The notes under the pieces are model-generated. The model was given only the letters and a program-made list of their open reading frames with translations. It was not told where the DNA came from and did not search any database. Made by a program: the position numbers and the translations under genes. A DNA stretch of 64,000 bases from Streptomyces dangxiongensis (GTDB lineage: Bacteria; Actinomycetota; Actinomycetes; Streptomycetales; Streptomycetaceae): the NCBI RefSeq assembly GCF_003675325.1, contig NZ_CP033073.1:2480001-2544000 (forward strand). Direction: 5' to 3'. Positions within the stretch are counted from its first letter, which is position 1. The number at the start of each line of letters is the position of its first letter. This document shows positions 10,311-64,000 of the stretch, piece by piece.

Positions 10311-10372
10311 CGTGGCGCCTCTTCGGTGAATCTTTCACCCCGGCATCACACACCGTGGCGTTTAGCGACTGG

Positions 10373-11344
10373 TCAGAAGAGCGCACGCGCCAACGCGCGG
10401 CGCGCCCCGATCACCCGCGGGTCCTCCGGGCCCACCACCTCGAACAGCTCCAGCAGCCGGACCCGTACCGCGTCCCGGTCGTCACCCGCCGTACGCTGCA
10501 CGGTCTGGATCAGTCGGCCGAAGGCGTCCTCGACGTGTCCGCCGACCAGGTCCAGGTCTGCGGCGGCGATCTGCGCCCGCACGTCCGACGGCTTCTCGGC
10601 CGCCTCCTGACGGACCTTCTGCGGATCCATACCCTGCACCCGCTGCAACAACTCGGCCTGCGCGAGACCCAGCAGGGCCTCGGGGTGAGCCGGGTCGTCG
10701 GCCAGCACGTTGCGGTAGGCCTGGATCGCCCCGCCCAGGTCGCCGGCGTCCAGCGCCAGCGCGGCGGCGTTCAGGGCCGCGTCGTACGGCCCCGCCGCCG
10801 GAGCGGCCTGCGGGGCACCGCCCGGCTCGGCGTCCGGGTCGACGGTCAGGCCGGTCAGCCCGAAGCGCTCCTCGGCGACGGCGACCAACTGGTCCAGCGT
10901 CTGCCGGATCTGCTGCTCGTCGGCCGCCCCCTGGAACAGCGGCAGCGCCTGCCCGGCGACGACCGCGAAGACGGCCGGGACGCCCTGGATCCCGAACTGC
11001 TGCATCAGCATCTGGTTGGCGTCGACGTCGATCCGGGCGAGGAGGATGCGCCCGTCGTACTCGACGGCCAGCCGCTCCAGGACCGGGCTCAGCTGCTTGC
11101 AGGGCTGACACCACTCGGCCCAGAAATCAATGACGACGGGTACTTCGGCGGAGCGCTGGAGGACATCGCGCTCGAAGCCCGCCTCATCGACGTCGATGAC
11201 GAGTTCGGCCGGCGAGACGGCCCCCGTCCCGCCCTGACGGGCGGCTTCGGCGCGCGCCTGCTCGGCCTTGGCCTTGGCCTCCTGGGCCGCCTTCACCGCG
11301 GCGAGGTCGACGACTCCGCTCATGGACATGTTCCGTGGCTGCAT
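10373..11344 (-). CDS. Thioredoxin-like/TPR protein (CnoX/YbbN family)
   Basis: 323 residues. After a charged Ala/Lys/Glu-rich N-terminus comes a thioredoxin fold (about 48-160) with VVIDFWAEWCQPCKQLSPVL, active-site Cys79 and Cys82, and the cis-Pro loop IQGVPAV. A C-terminal helical part (about 185-323; DAALNAAALALDAGDLGGAI, HPEALLGLAQAELL) has tetratricopeptide character. Family members are co-chaperones/holdases that guard clients during oxidative stress. Many have lost one Cys, whereas this one keeps CQPC and may be redox active. ATG at 11344 was chosen for the GGGGGAGGA upstream; the longer frame lacks support. Confidence 0.85.
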   Translation of the reverse strand: MQPRNMSMSGVVDLAAVKAAQEAKAKAEQARAEAARQGGTGAVSPAELVIDVDEAGFERDVLQRSAEVPVVIDFWAEWCQPCKQLSPVLERLAVEYDGRILLARIDVDANQMLMQQFGIQGVPAVFAVVAGQALPLFQGAADEQQIRQTLDQLVAVAEERFGLTGLTVDPDAEPGGAPQAAPAAGPYDAALNAAALALDAGDLGGAIQAYRNVLADDPAHPEALLGLAQAELLQRVQGMDPQKVRQEAAEKPSDVRAQIAAADLDLVGGHVEDAFGRLIQTVQRTAGDDRDAVRVRLLELFEVVGPEDPRVIGARRALARALF

Positions 11345-56769: not shown

Positions 56770-57210
56770 TCACGACGAGTGCCCTGTCTTCTCGGGCCTG
56801 CCGCCCTCGGAGGAGGCGTCGGGTTCGACGTAGAGGATCTTGGCCTTCATGTGGGCACGCGTCTGCGCGGTGATCCACGCGACGGTGGTGACCACGAGGA
56901 CGATGGCGAAGGCGCGGGGATTGAACAGCGTGGTGTCCCTGAACACGGCCACGAAGATGACCAGCAACAGGAGCTGGGCCGTGTAGAGCAGCAGGCCCAT
57001 GCCCTGAAAAAGCTGCGGAAGCGATTTGGCGGTGCGCTGCAGGACGTAGAGACCGAGTCCCATGAAGACGAAGACGACCAGCGTCGCGACGACGGCTCCG
57101 ATCGCTCCCTTGCCCCCCGCGACCACACCGCTGACGACGGCGGCGATCGCGCCGACGACAGCCGTGGGCACGGCGGCCTGGGCCAGGATCTGGGCGTCAT
57201 TGGACGGCAT
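56770..57210 (-). CDS. atpI: ATP synthase protein I
   Basis: 146 residues with four membrane helices (PTAVVGAIAAVVSGVVAGGK, AIGAVVATLVVFVFMGLGLY, QGMGLLLYTAQLLLLVIFVA, FAIVLVVTTVAWITAQTRAH). AtpI assists c-ring assembly or ion supply and is typically first in the operon, as here. 225 bp separate it from atpB. The likely operon promoter lies upstream, where a Rex-like site occurs. Confidence 0.9.
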   Translation of the reverse strand: MPSNDAQILAQAAVPTAVVGAIAAVVSGVVAGGKGAIGAVVATLVVFVFMGLGLYVLQRTAKSLPQLFQGMGLLLYTAQLLLLVIFVAVFRDTTLFNPRAFAIVLVVTTVAWITAQTRAHMKAKILYVEPDASSEGGRPEKTGHSS

Positions 57211-57516: not shown

Positions 57517-57558
57517 CGACCGGGGGCCGCGGGGATGGTCCCCCGCGGCCCCCGGTCG
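57517..57558 (-). terminator. Strong terminator of the ispH-dxs-ispG operon
   Basis: An 18-bp perfect stem (57517-57534 with 57541-57558, arms beginning CGACCGGGGGCC) and a 6-nt loop lie just past the ispG stop. It insulates the atp promoter from the incoming operon. Confidence 0.9.
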
Positions 57559-57578
57559 CGTGCATGCGCCCGTGCGCC

Positions 57579-58706
57579 TTACGCCGCCGATTCCTCCCGT
57601 GCCTCACCGGCCAGCCTGAGCGCCTCCTCTATGAGGGTCTCCGCGATCCTCGACTCCGGTACGGTCCGCACGACCTTGCCCCGGACGAAGATCTGTCCCT
57701 TGCCGTTGCCGGAGGCCACACCCAGGTCAGCCTCCCTGGCCTCACCCGGGCCGTTGACCACGCACCCCATCACGGCGACCCGCAGCGGGATGTCCATGCC
57801 CTCCAGAGCGGCCGTCACCTCGGCGGCCAGGCGGTAGACGTCCACCTGGGCCCGGCCGCACGACGGACAGGAGACGATCTCCAGCTTGCGCGGACGCAGA
57901 CCGAGCGCCCGCAGGATGTGAAGGCCCACCTTGACCTCCTCCACCGGCGGGGCCGACAGCGACACCCGGATCGTGTCGCCGATGCCCTGCCGGAGCAGGG
58001 CGCCGAAGGCCACGGCCGACTTCACGGTGCCCTGGAAGGCCGGGCCCGCCTCGGTGACGCCGAGGTGCAGGGGGTAGTCGCAGGCCTCGGCCAGCAGCTC
58101 ATAGGCACGGATCATCACCACCGGGTCGTGGTGCTTCACCGAGATCTTCAGGTCGTGGAAGTCATGCTCGGCGAAGAGCGAGGCCTCCCACAGCGCGGAC
58201 TCCACCAGCGCCTCGGGAGTCGCCCTGCCGTGCTTGGCCAGCAGCCGGGCGTCCAGGGAACCGGCGTTGACCCCGATCCTGATCGGGGTGCCCCGGTCCT
58301 TGGCGGCGCGGGCAATGGCCGCCACCTGGTCGTCGAACTTCCTGATGTTGCCCGGGTTCACCCGGATCCCCGCGCAGCCGGCGTCGATGGCGGCGAAGAC
58401 GTACTTCGGCTGGAAGTGGATGTCGGCGATGACCGGCAGGGACGACTTCGCCGCGATGACGGGCAGCGCGTCCGCGTCGTCCGGCGACGGGCAGGCGACC
58501 CGGACGATGTCGCAGCCCGCCGCGGCCAGCTCGGCGATCTGCTGCAGGGTCGCGTTCACATCGGCCGTGACCGTGGTGGTCATCGACTGCACGGCGATGG
58601 GGAAGTCACCACCGACGCCCACCCGGCCCACGCGCAGTGCGCGGGTCCTGCGGCGCTCCCCCAGGGTCTGCGGCGGTACGGCGGGCATCCCGAGCTGAAC
58701 CGTCAT
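57579..58706 (-). CDS. ispG: 4-hydroxy-3-methylbut-2-enyl-diphosphate synthase (IspG/GcpE)
   Basis: 375 residues. It converts methylerythritol cyclodiphosphate to HMBPP with a 4Fe-4S cluster. The TIM-barrel part ([45 protein letters not shown]) is followed by the cluster domain with SCPSCGR and [20 protein letters not shown]. It overlaps dxs by 4 bp (ATGA), so it is the last gene of the coupled operon. Streptomyces normally has a core ispG elsewhere, so this is probably a second, pathway-dedicated copy. Confidence 0.96.
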
Positions 58707-60538
58707 TCTCCTCTGCTCCTCCTGATCGGCGTGGTGTCCCCGGACCGGCCCAGCGCCCGCAGGGCCCGGCTGAGGATCCCGTCGGGCGTGAGACCGCTGC
58801 GCGCGAGGATGTCCTCGCGCCGCCCCTGGGCCAGGAACCGCTGCGGCAGGCCCATGACCTGGACCGGACGGCGGGCTCCGGCGTCCGTGAGCGCCTGGGC
58901 GAGGGCGGCCCCGGCACCGCCGGCCCGGCCGCTGTCCTCGACGCTCACCACCGCCCGGTGCGCGAGCCCCAGGTCGATCAGCTCGGGCGCGACCGGCATG
59001 ATCCAGCGCGGGTCCACCACGGTGACGCCGATGCCCCGCCGCCGCAGCAGCTCCGCGGCGGCCAGGCAGACCGGGGCGAGCGGGCCGACGGACACCAGCA
59101 GGACGTCGGCGTCCTCGCCGGAGCGATGCAGCACGTCGAGGCCGGCGACCGTGTCCACCGCGGGCACCGGCTCGGGCACCACGCCCTTGGGGAACCGCAC
59201 CGCGGTGGGCGCGTCGTCGACCGCGACGGCCTCGCCCAGCGCGCGGCGCAGGGTCGCGGCGTCACGCGGGGCGGCCACCCGCAGCCCGGGTACGAGCGGG
59301 AACAGGGACAGGTCCCACATGCCGTTGTGGGAGGGGCCGTCGTCACCGGTCGCCCCTGCCCGGTCCAGCACGAAGGTGACGGGCGCGCGGTGCAGCGCGA
59401 CGTCCATCAGCAACTGGTCGAAGCCCCGGTTGAGGAACGTGGCGTAGACGGCCACGACCGGGTGCAGGCCGCCGAGCGCCAGTCCGGCGGCCGAGGTGAC
59501 GGCGTGCTGCTCCGCGATACCCACGTCGAAGGTCCGCTCGGGGAAGCGCCGGGCGAACGCGGTCAGCCCGGTCGGCTCCAGCATGGCCGCGGTCAGGGCG
59601 ACGATGTCGGCCCGCCGCTCGCCCAGGTCGGCCAGTTCCGCCTCGAACACCGAGGTCCACGACGCCCGCTTCACCGCGGGCGCGCCACCGGGGGCGGGCC
59701 GGGCGCGGACGGCGTGGCAGCGGTCGGCCTCGTTCCGCTCGGCGGGGGCGTGTCCGTGTCCCTTCCGGGTCACGCAGTGCACGACCACCGGCCGGCGCAG
59801 GGCGGCGGCCCCGCGCAGCGCCTCCTCCAGGGCCTCGATGTCATGGCCGTCGACCGGTCCGAGCTGGACCAGCCCCAGGTTGTCGAAGAGGCCGGGCACA
59901 CCGGCCGGGCGGTCGGCGGCGCGGCGCGCCGCGAGGTGCTCGGCGATGCCGCCGACGGTCGGCGCGTAGCTGCGGCCGTTGTCGTTGAGGACGATGACGA
60001 CGGGGCGGTGCGGCGCCGCCGCGATGTTGTTCAGCGCCTCCCAGGCCATGCCCCCGGTAAGGGCGCCGTCACCGATCACCGCGACGACCGCCCGGTCGGT
60101 GACCCCGCGCAGCGCGTGCGCCTTGGCCAGGCCGTCGGCGTACGACAGGACCGTGGAGGCGTGGGAGTTCTCGATGACGTCGTGCGGGGACTCCTCCCGC
60201 GCGGGATATCCGGACAGGCCCTCGGGCTGGCGCAGCGCGTCAAAGGCGTCGGCGCGGCCGGTCAGGATCTTGTGCACGTACGTCTGGTGGCCGGTGTCCC
60301 ACAGAAGGGTGTCGCGGGGCGAGTCGAAGACGCGGTGCAGGGCGAGGGTCAGTTCCACCACGCCCAGGTTCGGTCCGAGGTGGCCCCCGGTGCGGCTGAC
60401 CTTGTCGACGAGGAAGCGGCGGATCTCCCCGGCGAGTTCCCGGAGCTGCTCCGTGGTCAGGGCGCACAGGTCCTCGGGACCGCGCAGCGCGGCGAGTGAG
60501 GTGGCAGGGCGTTCGACGCTGGTCGTCACGGCGCTCAC
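58703..60538 (-). CDS. dxs: 1-deoxy-D-xylulose-5-phosphate synthase
   Basis: 611 residues. It condenses pyruvate and glyceraldehyde 3-phosphate with thiamine diphosphate, the entry step of the MEP pathway. [53 protein letters not shown] (cofactor motif) and [18 protein letters not shown] with the catalytic Glu are present, plus the C-terminal transketolase domain. GTG 60538 overlaps the ispH stop (GTGA). It is slightly short for the family (usually about 620-640). DTGHQTY differs from the more usual DVGHQAY, suggesting a divergent copy. Confidence 0.96.
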
Positions 60539-61533
60539 CGGTCCTCGTCGGCCAGCGGCGTGCGCGGCGCCCGCCCGGTCTCCGGGTCGGCCAGTCGCGT
60601 GGGCATGGCGAAGACCACGTCCTCCGGGGTTCCGTCGTCCACCCGGACGTCGGTGTGCCCGAGCGCGGTCAGACGGTCCACCAGGCCGCGTACCAGGATC
60701 TCGGGCGCACTCGCGCCGGCGCTGACGCCGACCGTGCCGGCCGAGTCCAGCCACCGCTCGTCCAGGCGCGTGACGTCGGGGACGAGGTGGGCGGGGCAGC
60801 CCTCGCGGCGGGCGACCTCCACCATCCGCTGGGAGTTGCTGGAGTTCTCGGATCCGACCACGAGGACCACGTCGCAGGAGCGCGCCAGGGACTTCACCGC
60901 GTTCTGGCGGTTCTGGCTCGCGTAGCAGATGTCGTCTCCGTGCGGGCCGACGATGTCGGTGAAGCGCCGGTGCAGGGCCTGGACGACCTCGGCGGTCTCG
61001 TCGAAGGACAGTGTCGTCTGGGTCAGGTACGCCACCGGGGCGTCCTCGGGGACGTCCAGCCGCTCGACGTCCTCGGCGCTCTCGACGACCAGGGTCCGGG
61101 CCGGCGCCTCGCCCCGGACCCCCTCGACCTCTTCGTGGTCCTCGTGCCCGACCAGCAGGATGGTGCGCCCGTCGCGGGCGAACCGGACCGCTTCCTGGTG
61201 CACCTTCGCCACCAGGGGGCAGGTGGCGTCGATGACGTCGAGCCGCCGCGCGGTCGCGCCCGCCCGCACCTGCGGGGAGACGCCGTGGGCGGAGAAGACG
61301 CACACGGCGCCCTCGGGGACCTCGTCCTCGCTGTCGACGAAGACCGCGCCGCGCCGCCGCAGTTCGCCGACGACATGGTGGTTGTGCACGATCTCCTTGC
61401 GGACGTACACGGGCGCGCCGTACAGGTCCAGGGCGCGTTCGACGATGCCGATGGCGCGCCGGACGCCCGCGCAGAAGCCGCGGGGTTCGGCGAGGAGGAC
61501 GCGCGGGTGGGGCGTCGTCTGCTCGGTGGTCAT
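60535..61533 (-). CDS. ispH: 4-hydroxy-3-methylbut-2-enyl diphosphate reductase (IspH/LytB)
   Basis: 332 residues, final MEP step producing IPP and DMAPP with a 4Fe-4S cluster. The three cluster Cys lie in [21 protein letters not shown] and [29 protein letters not shown], the catalytic Glu region YLTQTTLS and [10 protein letters not shown] are also visible. It overlaps the exporter stop and the dxs start by 4 bp each. The C-terminus ([19 protein letters not shown]) is an unremarkable tail. Confidence 0.96.
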
Positions 61534-64000
61534 TGGGGCCTTCCTTGCGTCTGGAGTTCCGTACGGGGGTGCGCCTCGTGAGCGCGCCAGAGGGCGGCGT
61601 AGTGCCCGCCCAGCGCCAGGAGTTCGTCGTGCGTTCCGTCCTCGCACACGCAGCCGTGGCGCAGCACGAGGACGCGGTCGGCGCGGGCGGCCAGGGCGAG
61701 CCGGTGTGTGATGACCAGCGTGGTGCGCCGGGCCGCGAGCCGGTCGGTGGCGGCGTCGACCATGGCCTCGGTGGCGGGGTCCAGGGCGGACGTCGCCTCG
61801 TCGAGGAGCAGCACGGCGGGCGCGGCCAGCCGGGTCCGGGTGAGGGCGATCAACTGGCGCTGGCCCACGGAGAGGTCGCCTCCGCCTTCGGTGAGCCGGT
61901 GCCGGTAGCCGTCGGGCAGCGCCGTGATGAAGGAGTGGGCCCCGGTCAGCCGGGCCGCCGTCTCGATCTCGTCGTCCGTGGCGTCGTCCCGCCCGTAGGC
62001 GAGGGCGTCCCGGACGGTTCCGGCGAACAGGTAGGGCTCCTGGGGTATGAGGCCGAGCCGTTGCCGGTAGGCGCTCAGGGCGAGTTCGCGGATGTCCTGC
62101 CCGTCGACGAGGACGGCGCCCGCGGTGGGGTCGTAGAAGCGCGCGACCAGCTTCAGCAGGGTCGACTTGCCCGACCCGGTCTCGCCGACGACGGCCACCC
62201 GCTGTCCGGCGGGGATCCGGACGCTGACGCCGGTCAGGGCGGCCGGCCGGGCCGCGGGGCCGGCGGTGTCCGCGTACCGGAAGTGGACGTCGTCCAGCAC
62301 GATCTCCCCCCGCAGCGGGCCGACGGGGCGGGGGTGCGCGGCCTGCGGTGTGCCGGTGGGCAGCCGCAGCAGCTCGTCGATCCGGTCGAGGGAGACCCGC
62401 GCCTGCTGGAAGGTGTCGAAGAGCTGGGAGATCTGCTGGACGGGGACGAAGAACAGCTCCAGGTACAGCAGGTAGGCGACGAGTGTGGCCGCGCTCATGG
62501 AGCCGTCCCGGACGTGCCGCGCACCGAAGGCCAGCAGGCCGGCCGTACAGACGGCGGCCAGGCACTCGATGAAGGGGAAGTACAGCGCCATCAGGTACTG
62601 CGAGCGGATCCGCGCCCGCCGGACGGCGTCGCTCTGTGCGGTGAACCGCCGCAGGAACGCCCCTTCCTGGCGGAAGGCCTGGATGACGGGCATGCCCTGC
62701 GCGCCCTCCTGGAGGGCGGCGTTGACCGTGGCGGTCCGCTCCCGCGCCAGCCGGTAGGCGGCCAGCGACCGGCGGCGGAACACGGTCGTGGCCAGGTACA
62801 GGGCGGGCAGCAGAAGCAGCGCCGCCAGGAGCAGGACGGGGTTGGCGACCAGCAGGAGGACCAGGACTCCGCCCATGGTGAGCAGGCCGGCGAGGAAGCC
62901 CGTCAGCCCCGTCTGCACGAAACCGGAGACGGCGTCCACGTCGGTGGTCATCCGGGTGAGGGTCCGGCCGTCGGCCTCCCGCTCGTAGTGGTCCAGGCCC
63001 AGGCGGTGCAACTGGGCGGCCATGCGGACCCGCAGGGCGTACAGCAGGCGCTCGCCGGTGCGTCCGGTGACCCGCAGGGAGCCGTGCTGGACCAGCCAGC
63101 GCAGCAGTGTGACGGCCAGGGCGGCGGCGCACGCCGCCGACAGCGCCGTGGGAGCCGCCCCGTCGGTGATGCTCTCGATGCCCCACCGCACGGCGTAGGG
63201 CTGGGCGAGACCGCACAGGACGTCGGCGAGCACCAGGGCCAGGCCCGCCGCGAGCGGCAGCCGGAAGCCCCGGGTGAGCCTGCGGAGGCCGAACGCGCCA
63301 CCGACGTCACGGGCCAGGGCGTCCTCGTCGACGGCCGGGTCCTCGTCGACGGCCGGGGGTCTGGGCGCGGACGCGGACGCGGACGCGGACCGCGGGTGCG
63401 GGCCGGGCGCGGGGCCGGCCGGCGGCGGGGGCGTGCCGGACGGCTCGGCCGGGACCGCGTCGAAGTGGGCACGGTAGAGGGCGCAACGGGCGTGCAGTTC
63501 CTCGTGGGTGCCCAGGTCGGCGAGCCGGCCGCGGTCCAGTACGGCTATGCGGTCGGCCAGCGCCAGGGTCGATCTGCGGCGCGCGACCACGAGCGTCGTA
63601 CGGCGCCCGGCGTGTGTGCGCAGGCCCTCGTGGATCGCCGCCTCCACGGCAGGGTCCACCGCGGAGGTCGCGTCGTCGAGGATCAGCAGACGGGGCCTCA
63701 GGAGCAGGGCGCGGGCCAGGGCGAGGCGTTGACGCTGGCCGCCGGAGAGGGTCCGGCCCCGTTCGCCGACCTCCGTCAGGTAGCCGTTCGGGAGGGCCGA
63801 GACGAAGCCGTCGGCCTGGGCCAGCCGTGCCGCCTCGCGGATCTCCTCGTCGTCGGCGTCGGGGCGGCCCAGCGCGATGTTGTCGCGGACGCTCCCGGCG
63901 AACAGGAGGCTCTCCTCCGGCACCAGGGCGAGGGAGGCGCGCAGCGATTCCAGACGCAGTTCGCGCACGTCCGTGCCGCCGATCCGGACGGCGCCCGTCT
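61530..64000 (-). CDS. Fused ABC exporter (TMD-NBD-TMD-NBD), 5' end outside window
   Basis: The frame is open to the right edge, so the N-terminal membrane domain is missing. About 820 residues are visible. First comes the C-terminal part of NBD1 (Q-loop [19 protein letters not shown], signature [15 protein letters not shown], Walker [13 protein letters not shown]). An Ala/Ser/Pro linker ([12 protein letters not shown]) follows, then the second membrane domain with six helices. NBD2 has Walker [11 protein letters not shown]-loop [11 protein letters not shown], signature variant [14 protein letters not shown] and Walker [13 protein letters not shown]. In NBD1 the H-loop histidine position reads VVARRRS instead of the usual xTHRL, suggesting a degenerate, non-hydrolysing site. 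Coupled with ispH by 4 bp, it may export an isoprenoid-derived product. Confidence 0.9.

What the first reader, a model, noticed from the sequence alone, without database searches (positions are those of the whole stretch)
57517..64000. Coupled ABC exporter-ispH-dxs-ispG cassette joined to the ATP synthase locus
Seen: four consecutive minus-strand genes (exporter, ispH, dxs, ispG) each overlap the next by 4 bp and end at an 18-bp-stem terminator. Known: Streptomyces core MEP genes are normally scattered, and extra dxs/ispG/ispH copies occur in terpenoid and meroterpenoid clusters. Inferred: this is an accessory precursor-supply operon, inserted next to the otherwise conserved atp region, with a fused exporter as its first visible gene. 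Direct coupling of an exporter with three rate-relevant MEP enzymes (entry step plus the two Fe-S enzymes) is unusual. The biosynthetic genes should lie just right of the window.
Basis: partly seen in the sequence, partly recalled or inferred. Interest (0 to 1): 0.75.

Follow-up and report, generated by a model that had tools for sequence, protein, structure and literature searches.

The report
Terpene-precursor module of peptide antibiotic cluster
Next to the ATP synthase genes of a Streptomyces sits the end of a ~75-kb gene cluster predicted to make a sugar-decorated peptide together with a terpene, and it carries its own extra set of isoprenoid-precursor enzymes, one of them a natural form lacking a floppy loop that structural biologists remove on purpose.

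Summary
In detail: ispG, dxs, ispH and a fused ABC exporter form a minus-strand chain with three 4-bp overlaps, ending at an 18-bp perfect stem. The genome has 3 dxs, 2 ispG, 2 ispH. In 27 of 29 other Streptomyces loci atpI lies 279-1156 bp from the WecA/MraY-like gene; here ~76 kb intervene: a cluster with a nine-module NRPS, MbtH, PPTase, deoxy-aminosugar and diaminopropionate genes and, as predicted, a terpene synthase with intact metal-binding motifs. Five of 391 other Streptomyces genomes hold the same cluster family; four of the five carry ispH-dxs-ispG. Nine further loci carry the triad (one cut at a contig end); eight have terpenoid enzymes alongside. Precursor supply is therefore well supported. 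New here: the window DXS and 11 relatives, all beside ispH, lack the ~35-residue flexible loop (10-13 residues instead of 44-48) that engineers delete to obtain stable MtDXPS. I propose a dedicated, stabilised DXS feeding the cluster's terpene, probably a cap on the peptide (inferred). Product and activity are untested; the NRPS reading frame shifts at two places, by assembly error or decay.

The parts
57579..58706 (-). accessory ispG (HMBPP synthase), 375 aa
   Evidence: Pfam GcpE 5.6e-140; 77% identical to the genome's other ispG
58703..60538 (-). accessory dxs (DXP synthase), 611 aa, lacking the flexible loop (13 residues instead of 48)
   Evidence: TIGR00204 equivalog above cut-off; loop lengths; 61% identical to the genome's two other DXS
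60535..61533 (-). accessory ispH (HMBPP reductase), 332 aa
   Evidence: Pfam LYTB 8.3e-92; 53% identical to the genome's other ispH, 78-79% to ispH of four sister clusters
61530..64000 (-). fused ABC exporter, continues to 65225 in window numbering (1231 aa, two membrane and two ATPase domains)
   Evidence: 59-60% identical exporter next to ispH in three sister clusters
57517..57558 (-). hairpin, likely terminator, behind ispG (18-bp perfect stem, 6-nt loop)
56770..57210 (-). atpI, left border of the inserted cluster (housekeeping, not part of it)
   Evidence: ORF; next to the WecA/MraY-like gene in 27 of 29 other loci

Best explanation
The cassette is the 3' end of a likely operon (MbtH, PPTase, exporter, ispH, dxs, ispG) belonging to a ~75-kb NRPS-terpene biosynthetic cluster inserted between atpI and a WecA/MraY-like gene. 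The three MEP enzymes (entry step and the last two, Fe-S, steps) raise IPP/DMAPP supply during production for the cluster's own class I terpene synthase; the exporter exports the product. DXS is a dedicated form without the flexible loop, probably more stable than the housekeeping enzyme. Shown: gene content, order, extra copies, conservation of the cluster and of the triad, loop loss. Inferred: co-transcription, increased flux, stability of DXS, and that the terpene, after oxidation (MPAB/Lcp-like oxygenase, aldehyde dehydrogenase) and activation (AMP ligase), becomes an acyl starter or cap of the nine-residue, glycosylated peptide.
For: Second/third copies in the genome. Terpene synthase at 121450-122472 in window numbering, PF19086 1.3e-43, motifs DDQFDE and NDLFSCEKE present. 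Homologues at 65-74% identity in 5 of 391 other Streptomyces genomes, all five with MPAB oxygenase, SbnA/SbnB-like, AMP ligase and LLM genes beside it and a CoA transferase (in G134 about 27 kb away). NRPS seen in the four of five with enough DNA held. Second ispH in 4 of 5, dxs and ispG beside it in those four, CCR and MbtH in 5 of 5. Nine further triads: L020 (cut after dxs), L021, L022, L028, L044, L059, G085, G253, G377. Terpenoid enzymes in the held DNA of 8 of the 9: terpene synthase and polyprenyl synthase in L020, L021 and, by tblastn and Pfam, G253 and G377; UbiA in L022, L028, L059; polyprenyl synthase, UbiA and squalene-hopene-type cyclase in G085. Loop-less DXS only beside ispH, one branch 100/96.
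Against: Sister cluster G134 keeps the terpene synthase but has no triad, so the triad is helpful, not required. No FPP/GPP synthase among the 29 cluster proteins scanned, whereas L020, L021, L022, L028, L059 and G085 have one near their triads. L044 shows no terpenoid gene among those scanned in its 12.7 kb. No expression, flux or product data. The NRPS frame changes inside genes at about 100.0-100.1 kb and 79.6-79.7 kb in window numbering, so the cluster may be damaged or misassembled. For P. aeruginosa DXPS the engineered loop removal left kinetics comparable (PMC10504544, passages).
Confidence: 0.8

Rival explanations
1. Self-protection: the peptide resembles Asp/Gly-rich calcium-dependent lipopeptides that sequester undecaprenyl phosphate, and the MEP genes enlarge that pool in the producer.
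For: Adenylation codes read as Asp at modules 3 and 6 and Gly at 5 and 7 (sequences; code positions recalled); the triad is co-directional with the exporter. The triad of G085 stands beside tryptophan halogenase and tryptophan dioxygenase genes, a pair I recall from the calcium-dependent lipopeptide taromycin.
Against: Eight of nine other triads stand with terpenoid enzymes; the 37-kb G085 contig shows no NRPS adenylation motif and has polyprenyl synthase, UbiA and a cyclase. No NRPS was seen among the genes scanned at the other triads, though not all genes there were scanned. Sister G134 has no triad.
Confidence: 0.08
2. Redundant copies: the triad backs up core isoprenoid synthesis (for instance against oxidative damage of the Fe-S enzymes, or after loss of the hopanoid-cluster ispG) and only hitchhikes at the cluster edge.
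For: The hopanoid cluster of this genome lacks most of the ispG that related species have there; the triad lies at the cluster border.
Against: Four sister clusters keep the triad with CCR and MbtH genes; loop-less DXS was found only beside ispH.
Confidence: 0.07
3. The triad supplies an isoprenoid other than the terpene synthase product, for example a polyprenyl carrier for glycosylation.
For: Two glycosyltransferases and NDP-sugar genes in this cluster.
Against: Three sister clusters with a triad (G299, G270, G364) gave no tblastn hit to the sugar genes at E 1e-8 and 35% coverage; the glycosyltransferases match EryCIII-like/GT28 models, which I recall as using nucleotide sugars directly.
Confidence: 0.05

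Closest known systems
Accessory MEP genes in actinobacterial terpenoid clusters (phenalinolactone-type dxs/ispG/ispH genes; recalled, not read here)
   Same: Extra dxs, ispG, ispH inside a secondary-metabolite cluster that uses isoprenoids
   Different: Here attached to a nine-module NRPS with a single terpene synthase; DXS lacks the flexible loop
Loop-truncated DXPS constructs (Delta-MtDXPS, PDB 7A9H/7A9G, PMC9068908, passages)
   Same: Same loop missing; 7A9H aligns to window DXS in one stretch, residues 15-592
   Different: Engineered with a seven-glycine linker; the window enzyme is natural, with 13 residues counted over the region where others have 48
Calcium-dependent lipopeptide clusters (friulimicin/laspartomycin/amphomycin type; recalled)
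   Same: NRPS with predicted Asp and Gly residues, diaminopropionate genes, acyl ligase, acyl-CoA dehydrogenase and ACP, MbtH
   Different: Nine modules, order Asp-X-Gly-Asp-Gly, terpene synthase and sugar genes, no demonstrated calcium dependence
Hopanoid cluster dxs/ispG of Streptomyces
   Same: Second dxs (and often ispG) copy serving a secondary isoprenoid
   Different: Different DXS branch, full-length loop, no ispH hit in the held flanks

Membership tests
DXP synthase (TIGR00204) | equivalog score above curated cut-off | tested here: met
   538.1 bits vs 465.95
DXP synthase (TIGR00204) | variable flexible loop between the N-terminal TPP part and the rest (not catalytic) | tested here: not met
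   13 residues vs 44-48 in 76 of 87 DXS compared; the loop is not needed for activity in engineered enzymes, so membership stands
IspG and IspH | Pfam GcpE / LYTB full-length match and Fe-S cysteines | tested here: met
   cysteine motifs (recalled as Fe-S ligands) CPSC and GC in IspG, FCAG, TCPL and CYAS in IspH are visible in the translations
MEP precursor-supply module of a terpenoid cluster | extra copies beyond housekeeping genes | tested here: met
MEP precursor-supply module of a terpenoid cluster | isoprenoid-using enzyme in the same cluster | tested here: met
   terpene synthase; conserved with the cluster
MEP precursor-supply module of a terpenoid cluster | raises product titre | not testable with these tools
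   needs deletion and LC-MS
Class I terpene synthase | Asp-rich motif and NSE triad | tested here: met
   DDQFDE at 81, NDLFSCEKE at 229
Calcium-dependent lipopeptide (Asp-X-Asp-Gly) | D-X-D-G order in the peptide | tested here: inconclusive
   codes read give Asp3-X4-Gly5-Asp6-Gly7 here; in G299 and G270 module 6 reads differently; code positions recalled

The most novel reading that the evidence does not exclude
Streptomyces specialised metabolism has evolved a separate DXP synthase lineage that lost the protease-sensitive flexible loop once, travels as an ispH-dxs-ispG module between terpenoid clusters, and gives a more stable or less regulated entry to the MEP pathway; in this cluster it feeds an undescribed class of glycosylated nonribosomal peptides capped with a cleaved terpene acid.
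Probability: 0.3. Interest if true: 0.7.

Novelty: new variant of a known kind. Interest (0 to 1): 0.5.

Why it matters
If the loop-less DXS is more stable or less regulated, nature has already made the enzyme that metabolic engineers want at the entry of the MEP pathway, and the triad is a ready precursor-supply part for actinobacteria. The cluster family (NRPS plus terpene synthase plus an oxygenase of a family that includes double-bond-cleaving members, recalled) points to a peptide-terpene product class that I did not find in five searches of the held library aimed at it. Three searches aimed at MEP genes in clusters (39, 52, 62) and two at DXS structure and feedback (54, 55); none was aimed by name at natural loop-less DXS.

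Tried and rejected
Triad as a general Streptomyces neighbour of atpI: rejected. Exporter plus MEP genes as an obligate unit: rejected, G364 has the triad without it. Triad strictly required by the terpene synthase: rejected, G134. Identification of the product by literature: five paper searches listed nothing that matched; seen as listings only. PMC13001223 (passages) speaks of MVA genes in Streptomyces clusters; the passages shown do not mention MEP triads. PMC6902898 (passages) names phenalinolactone only for its cluster size. My automatic adenylation-code reader slipped on modules 1, 2 and 7 of this genome (it printed DAPLDAGVC, DGVEVTADD, DILALGLIW); by eye they read DAPILAGVC, DVWEVTADD and DILQLGLIW. 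G299 and G270 agree with the by-eye module 2 and differ at one place in module 1 (DAPRLAGVC). The probe meant for the thioesterase was cut from the wrong frame, so its hits are not used; the thioesterase was confirmed. In one search, L048 and L066 came out as zero because extraction failed; L048 has the full loop, L066 stays unscored. (terpene synthase family in seven genomes) was not mapped onto the triad loci and is not used. G085 at first looked like a lipopeptide neighbourhood; its further contig showed polyprenyl synthase, UbiA and a cyclase.
Full report
1. Observation. The four genes, their strand, the three 4-bp overlaps (ATGA, GTGA, ATGA) and the hairpin are as described. The exporter runs to 65225 in window numbering if its first GTG is used (the gene caller preferred 65189) and is preceded by a PPTase and an MbtH gene. 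The likely operon is MbtH-PPTase-exporter-ispH-dxs-ispG.

2. Copies in the genome. The window lies at C2:2480001-2544000 of an 8.09-Mb contig. The genome has three dxs, two ispG and two ispH (the dxs family search also listed weaker, partial matches that I take as other thiamine enzymes). One other dxs lies about 0.8 kb from a squalene-hopene cyclase match and groups with copies of other species, six of which have ispG directly upstream. The remaining one is the likely housekeeping copy. Window DXS is 60.7% and 61.5% identical to the other two, which are 74% identical to each other; IspG is 77% and IspH 53% identical to its paralogue.

3. Insertion site. 61 of 61 Streptomyces genomes examined have the WecA/MraY-like gene (named by eye). 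Loci were cut for the 30 best-matching of them. The window's own has no atpI within the held DNA; of the other 29, 27 have atpI 279-1156 bp away (distance between match ends). In the remaining two atpI was not seen: L152, whose held DNA is shorter, and L154. In the window's genome about 76 kb separate the two genes. GC is 74.2% in the insert, 68.0% on the atp side and 71.5% on the other side.

4. What fills it. Gene calls and Pfam scans of 29 proteins (ten of them also against NCBIfam; two more later; the regulator and the Gfo/Idh-like gene were not scanned) give: two EryCIII-like glycosyltransferases, NDP-hexose 2,3-dehydratase, RmlA- and RmlB-like genes (Pfam NTP_transferase, GDP_Man_Dehyd), a DesI-like aminotransferase, a PhyH-like dioxygenase, a crotonyl-CoA reductase, a TauD-like dioxygenase, enoyl-CoA hydratase, esterase, AMP ligase, acyl-CoA dehydrogenase, TrpB-like enzyme, ACP, stand-alone thioesterase, aldehyde dehydrogenase, terpene synthase, MPAB/Lcp-type oxygenase, SbnA- and SbnB-like genes (below their NCBIfam cut-offs), CoA transferase, a second AMP ligase and a luciferase-like monooxygenase. 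NRPS motifs give nine adenylation domains with epimerisation-type motifs after modules 4 and 8; a carrier and a thioesterase domain close the assembly line. Specificity codes, read with recalled positions, are firm only for Asp (modules 3 and 6) and Gly (5 and 7). The reading frame changes inside NRPS genes at about 100.0-100.1 kb and 79.6-79.7 kb; a third change at about 96.3 kb is the border between two genes.

5. The terpene synthase belongs to the cluster. It has both metal-binding motifs; its best NCBIfam models are sesquiterpene synthases, all scoring below their cut-offs. In a sample of 392 Streptomyces genomes, the window's own included, six have a close homologue. All five others keep terpene synthase, MPAB, SbnA, SbnB, AMP ligase and LLM together; the CoA transferase is also in all five, in G134 at a distance. 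TauD, hydratase and thioesterase are in the four whose held DNA extends that far (the fifth, G249, ends at a contig border). NRPS modules were seen in those same four, and the N-terminal condensation domain is 73-75% identical. Aldehyde dehydrogenase is in G299, G270 and G364, not seen in G134. A wider protein search gave 36 proteins at E 1e-60 or better, the window's own included; where a source named the organism it was Streptomyces in all but one case (Frankia), and the protein names are generic.

6. The triad belongs to the cluster family. Four of five sisters have a second ispH at 78-79% identity with dxs and ispG beside it. The fused exporter is next to it in three of these four. G134 has no triad in the 120 kb read. 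Sugar genes gave no hit in G299, G270 and G364, so glycosylation looks like an addition in the window's lineage.

7. Triads elsewhere. Of the 80 best DXS loci kept from 585, five have ispH, dxs and ispG together and one more has ispH-dxs at a contig end. The genus search added G085, G253 and G377. L020, L021, G253 and G377 carry a terpene synthase; polyprenyl synthase and P450 are shown by Pfam for L020 and L021 and by tblastn for G253 and G377; the set resembles the pentalenolactone genes (recalled). L022 and L059 have UbiA and Pyr4-type cyclase genes, L028 UbiA and NDP-sugar genes, and all three a polyprenyl synthase between ispH and dxs. G085 has polyprenyl synthase, UbiA, a squalene-hopene-type cyclase and a squalene-epoxidase-like enzyme, beside tryptophan halogenase and dioxygenase genes. 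L044 shows PKS-type genes and no terpenoid gene before its contig ends. So 8 of 9 stand with terpenoid enzymes.

8. A loop-less DXS lineage. In 87 DXS, nine have 10-13 residues where 76 have 44-48; two failed extraction, of which L048 was later seen to have the full loop. Three more short ones came and were read. All twelve stand next to ispH, eleven also next to ispG (L020 is cut). Two other triads (L022, L059) have the full loop. In a 39-row tree the twelve form one side of a branch with support 100/96; the root is a midpoint that falls inside this group, and L044 and L028 have long branches that meet, so single origin is likely, not proved. The search at E 1e-235 found such DXS in 8 of 392 Streptomyces genomes, own included; more distant loop-less forms like L028 and L044 may lie below that threshold. 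Engineered removal of the same loop from M. tuberculosis DXPS gave more than 50 mg/L instead of 0.5 mg/L soluble protein, +7.3 C melting temperature, less degradation and 2-3 times higher activity with slightly reduced substrate affinity (PMC9068908, passages); for P. aeruginosa the kinetics were comparable (PMC10504544, passages). Feedback inhibition by IPP/DMAPP is described for DXS in PMC4993486 (start of abstract in listing). That loop loss stabilises or deregulates the natural enzymes is my inference.

9. Mechanism and verdict. Precursor supply for a cluster-encoded terpene is well supported by genomic association. The use of the terpene as an acid starter or cap on the peptide is inferred from the conserved oxygenase, aldehyde dehydrogenase, ligase and first condensation domain, and is only moderately likely. 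As a kind, extra MEP genes in terpenoid clusters are known (recalled); I did not find the NRPS-terpene cluster family in five searches aimed at it, and I made no search aimed at natural loop-less DXS.

Noticed in passing
L016 about 10368-10385 (own genome C2 about 1173867-1173884): The hopanoid cluster of this genome lacks most of the ispG that related species carry beside dxs: the alignment jumps by about 1.06 kb against L029 and 1.08 kb against L058, and no ispG match was found in L016. This may tie in with the accessory ispG.
   Followed up: partly
own genome C2:1175735-1176686: The squalene-hopene cyclase matches in two overlapping pieces with different open frames, suggesting a frameshift or assembly error.
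   Followed up: no
window numbering about 100.0-100.1 kb and 79.6-79.7 kb (right of the window): Frame changes inside a condensation domain of the first NRPS gene and inside the last adenylation domain; assembly error or decay.
   Followed up: partly
window numbering 75894-76751: Short ORF whose start reads like that of the neighbouring glycosyltransferases, perhaps a remnant (by eye); no Pfam family matched it.
   Followed up: partly
G364 (L109, L136, L137) and G134 (L110, L139-L143): These sister clusters lack the esterase, AMP ligase, acyl-CoA dehydrogenase, TrpB-like and ACP genes at the place where the window's cluster has them, so the acyl or side-chain part of the product probably differs.
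   Followed up: no
L022, L028, L059, between ispH and dxs: A polyprenyl synthase gene stands inside the triad in all three.
   Followed up: partly
G085 contig C120 (L183, L186): A triad with loop-less DXS beside tryptophan halogenase, tryptophan dioxygenase, polyprenyl synthase, UbiA and a squalene-hopene-type cyclase: looks like a halogenated tryptophan-derived meroterpenoid cluster.
   Followed up: partly
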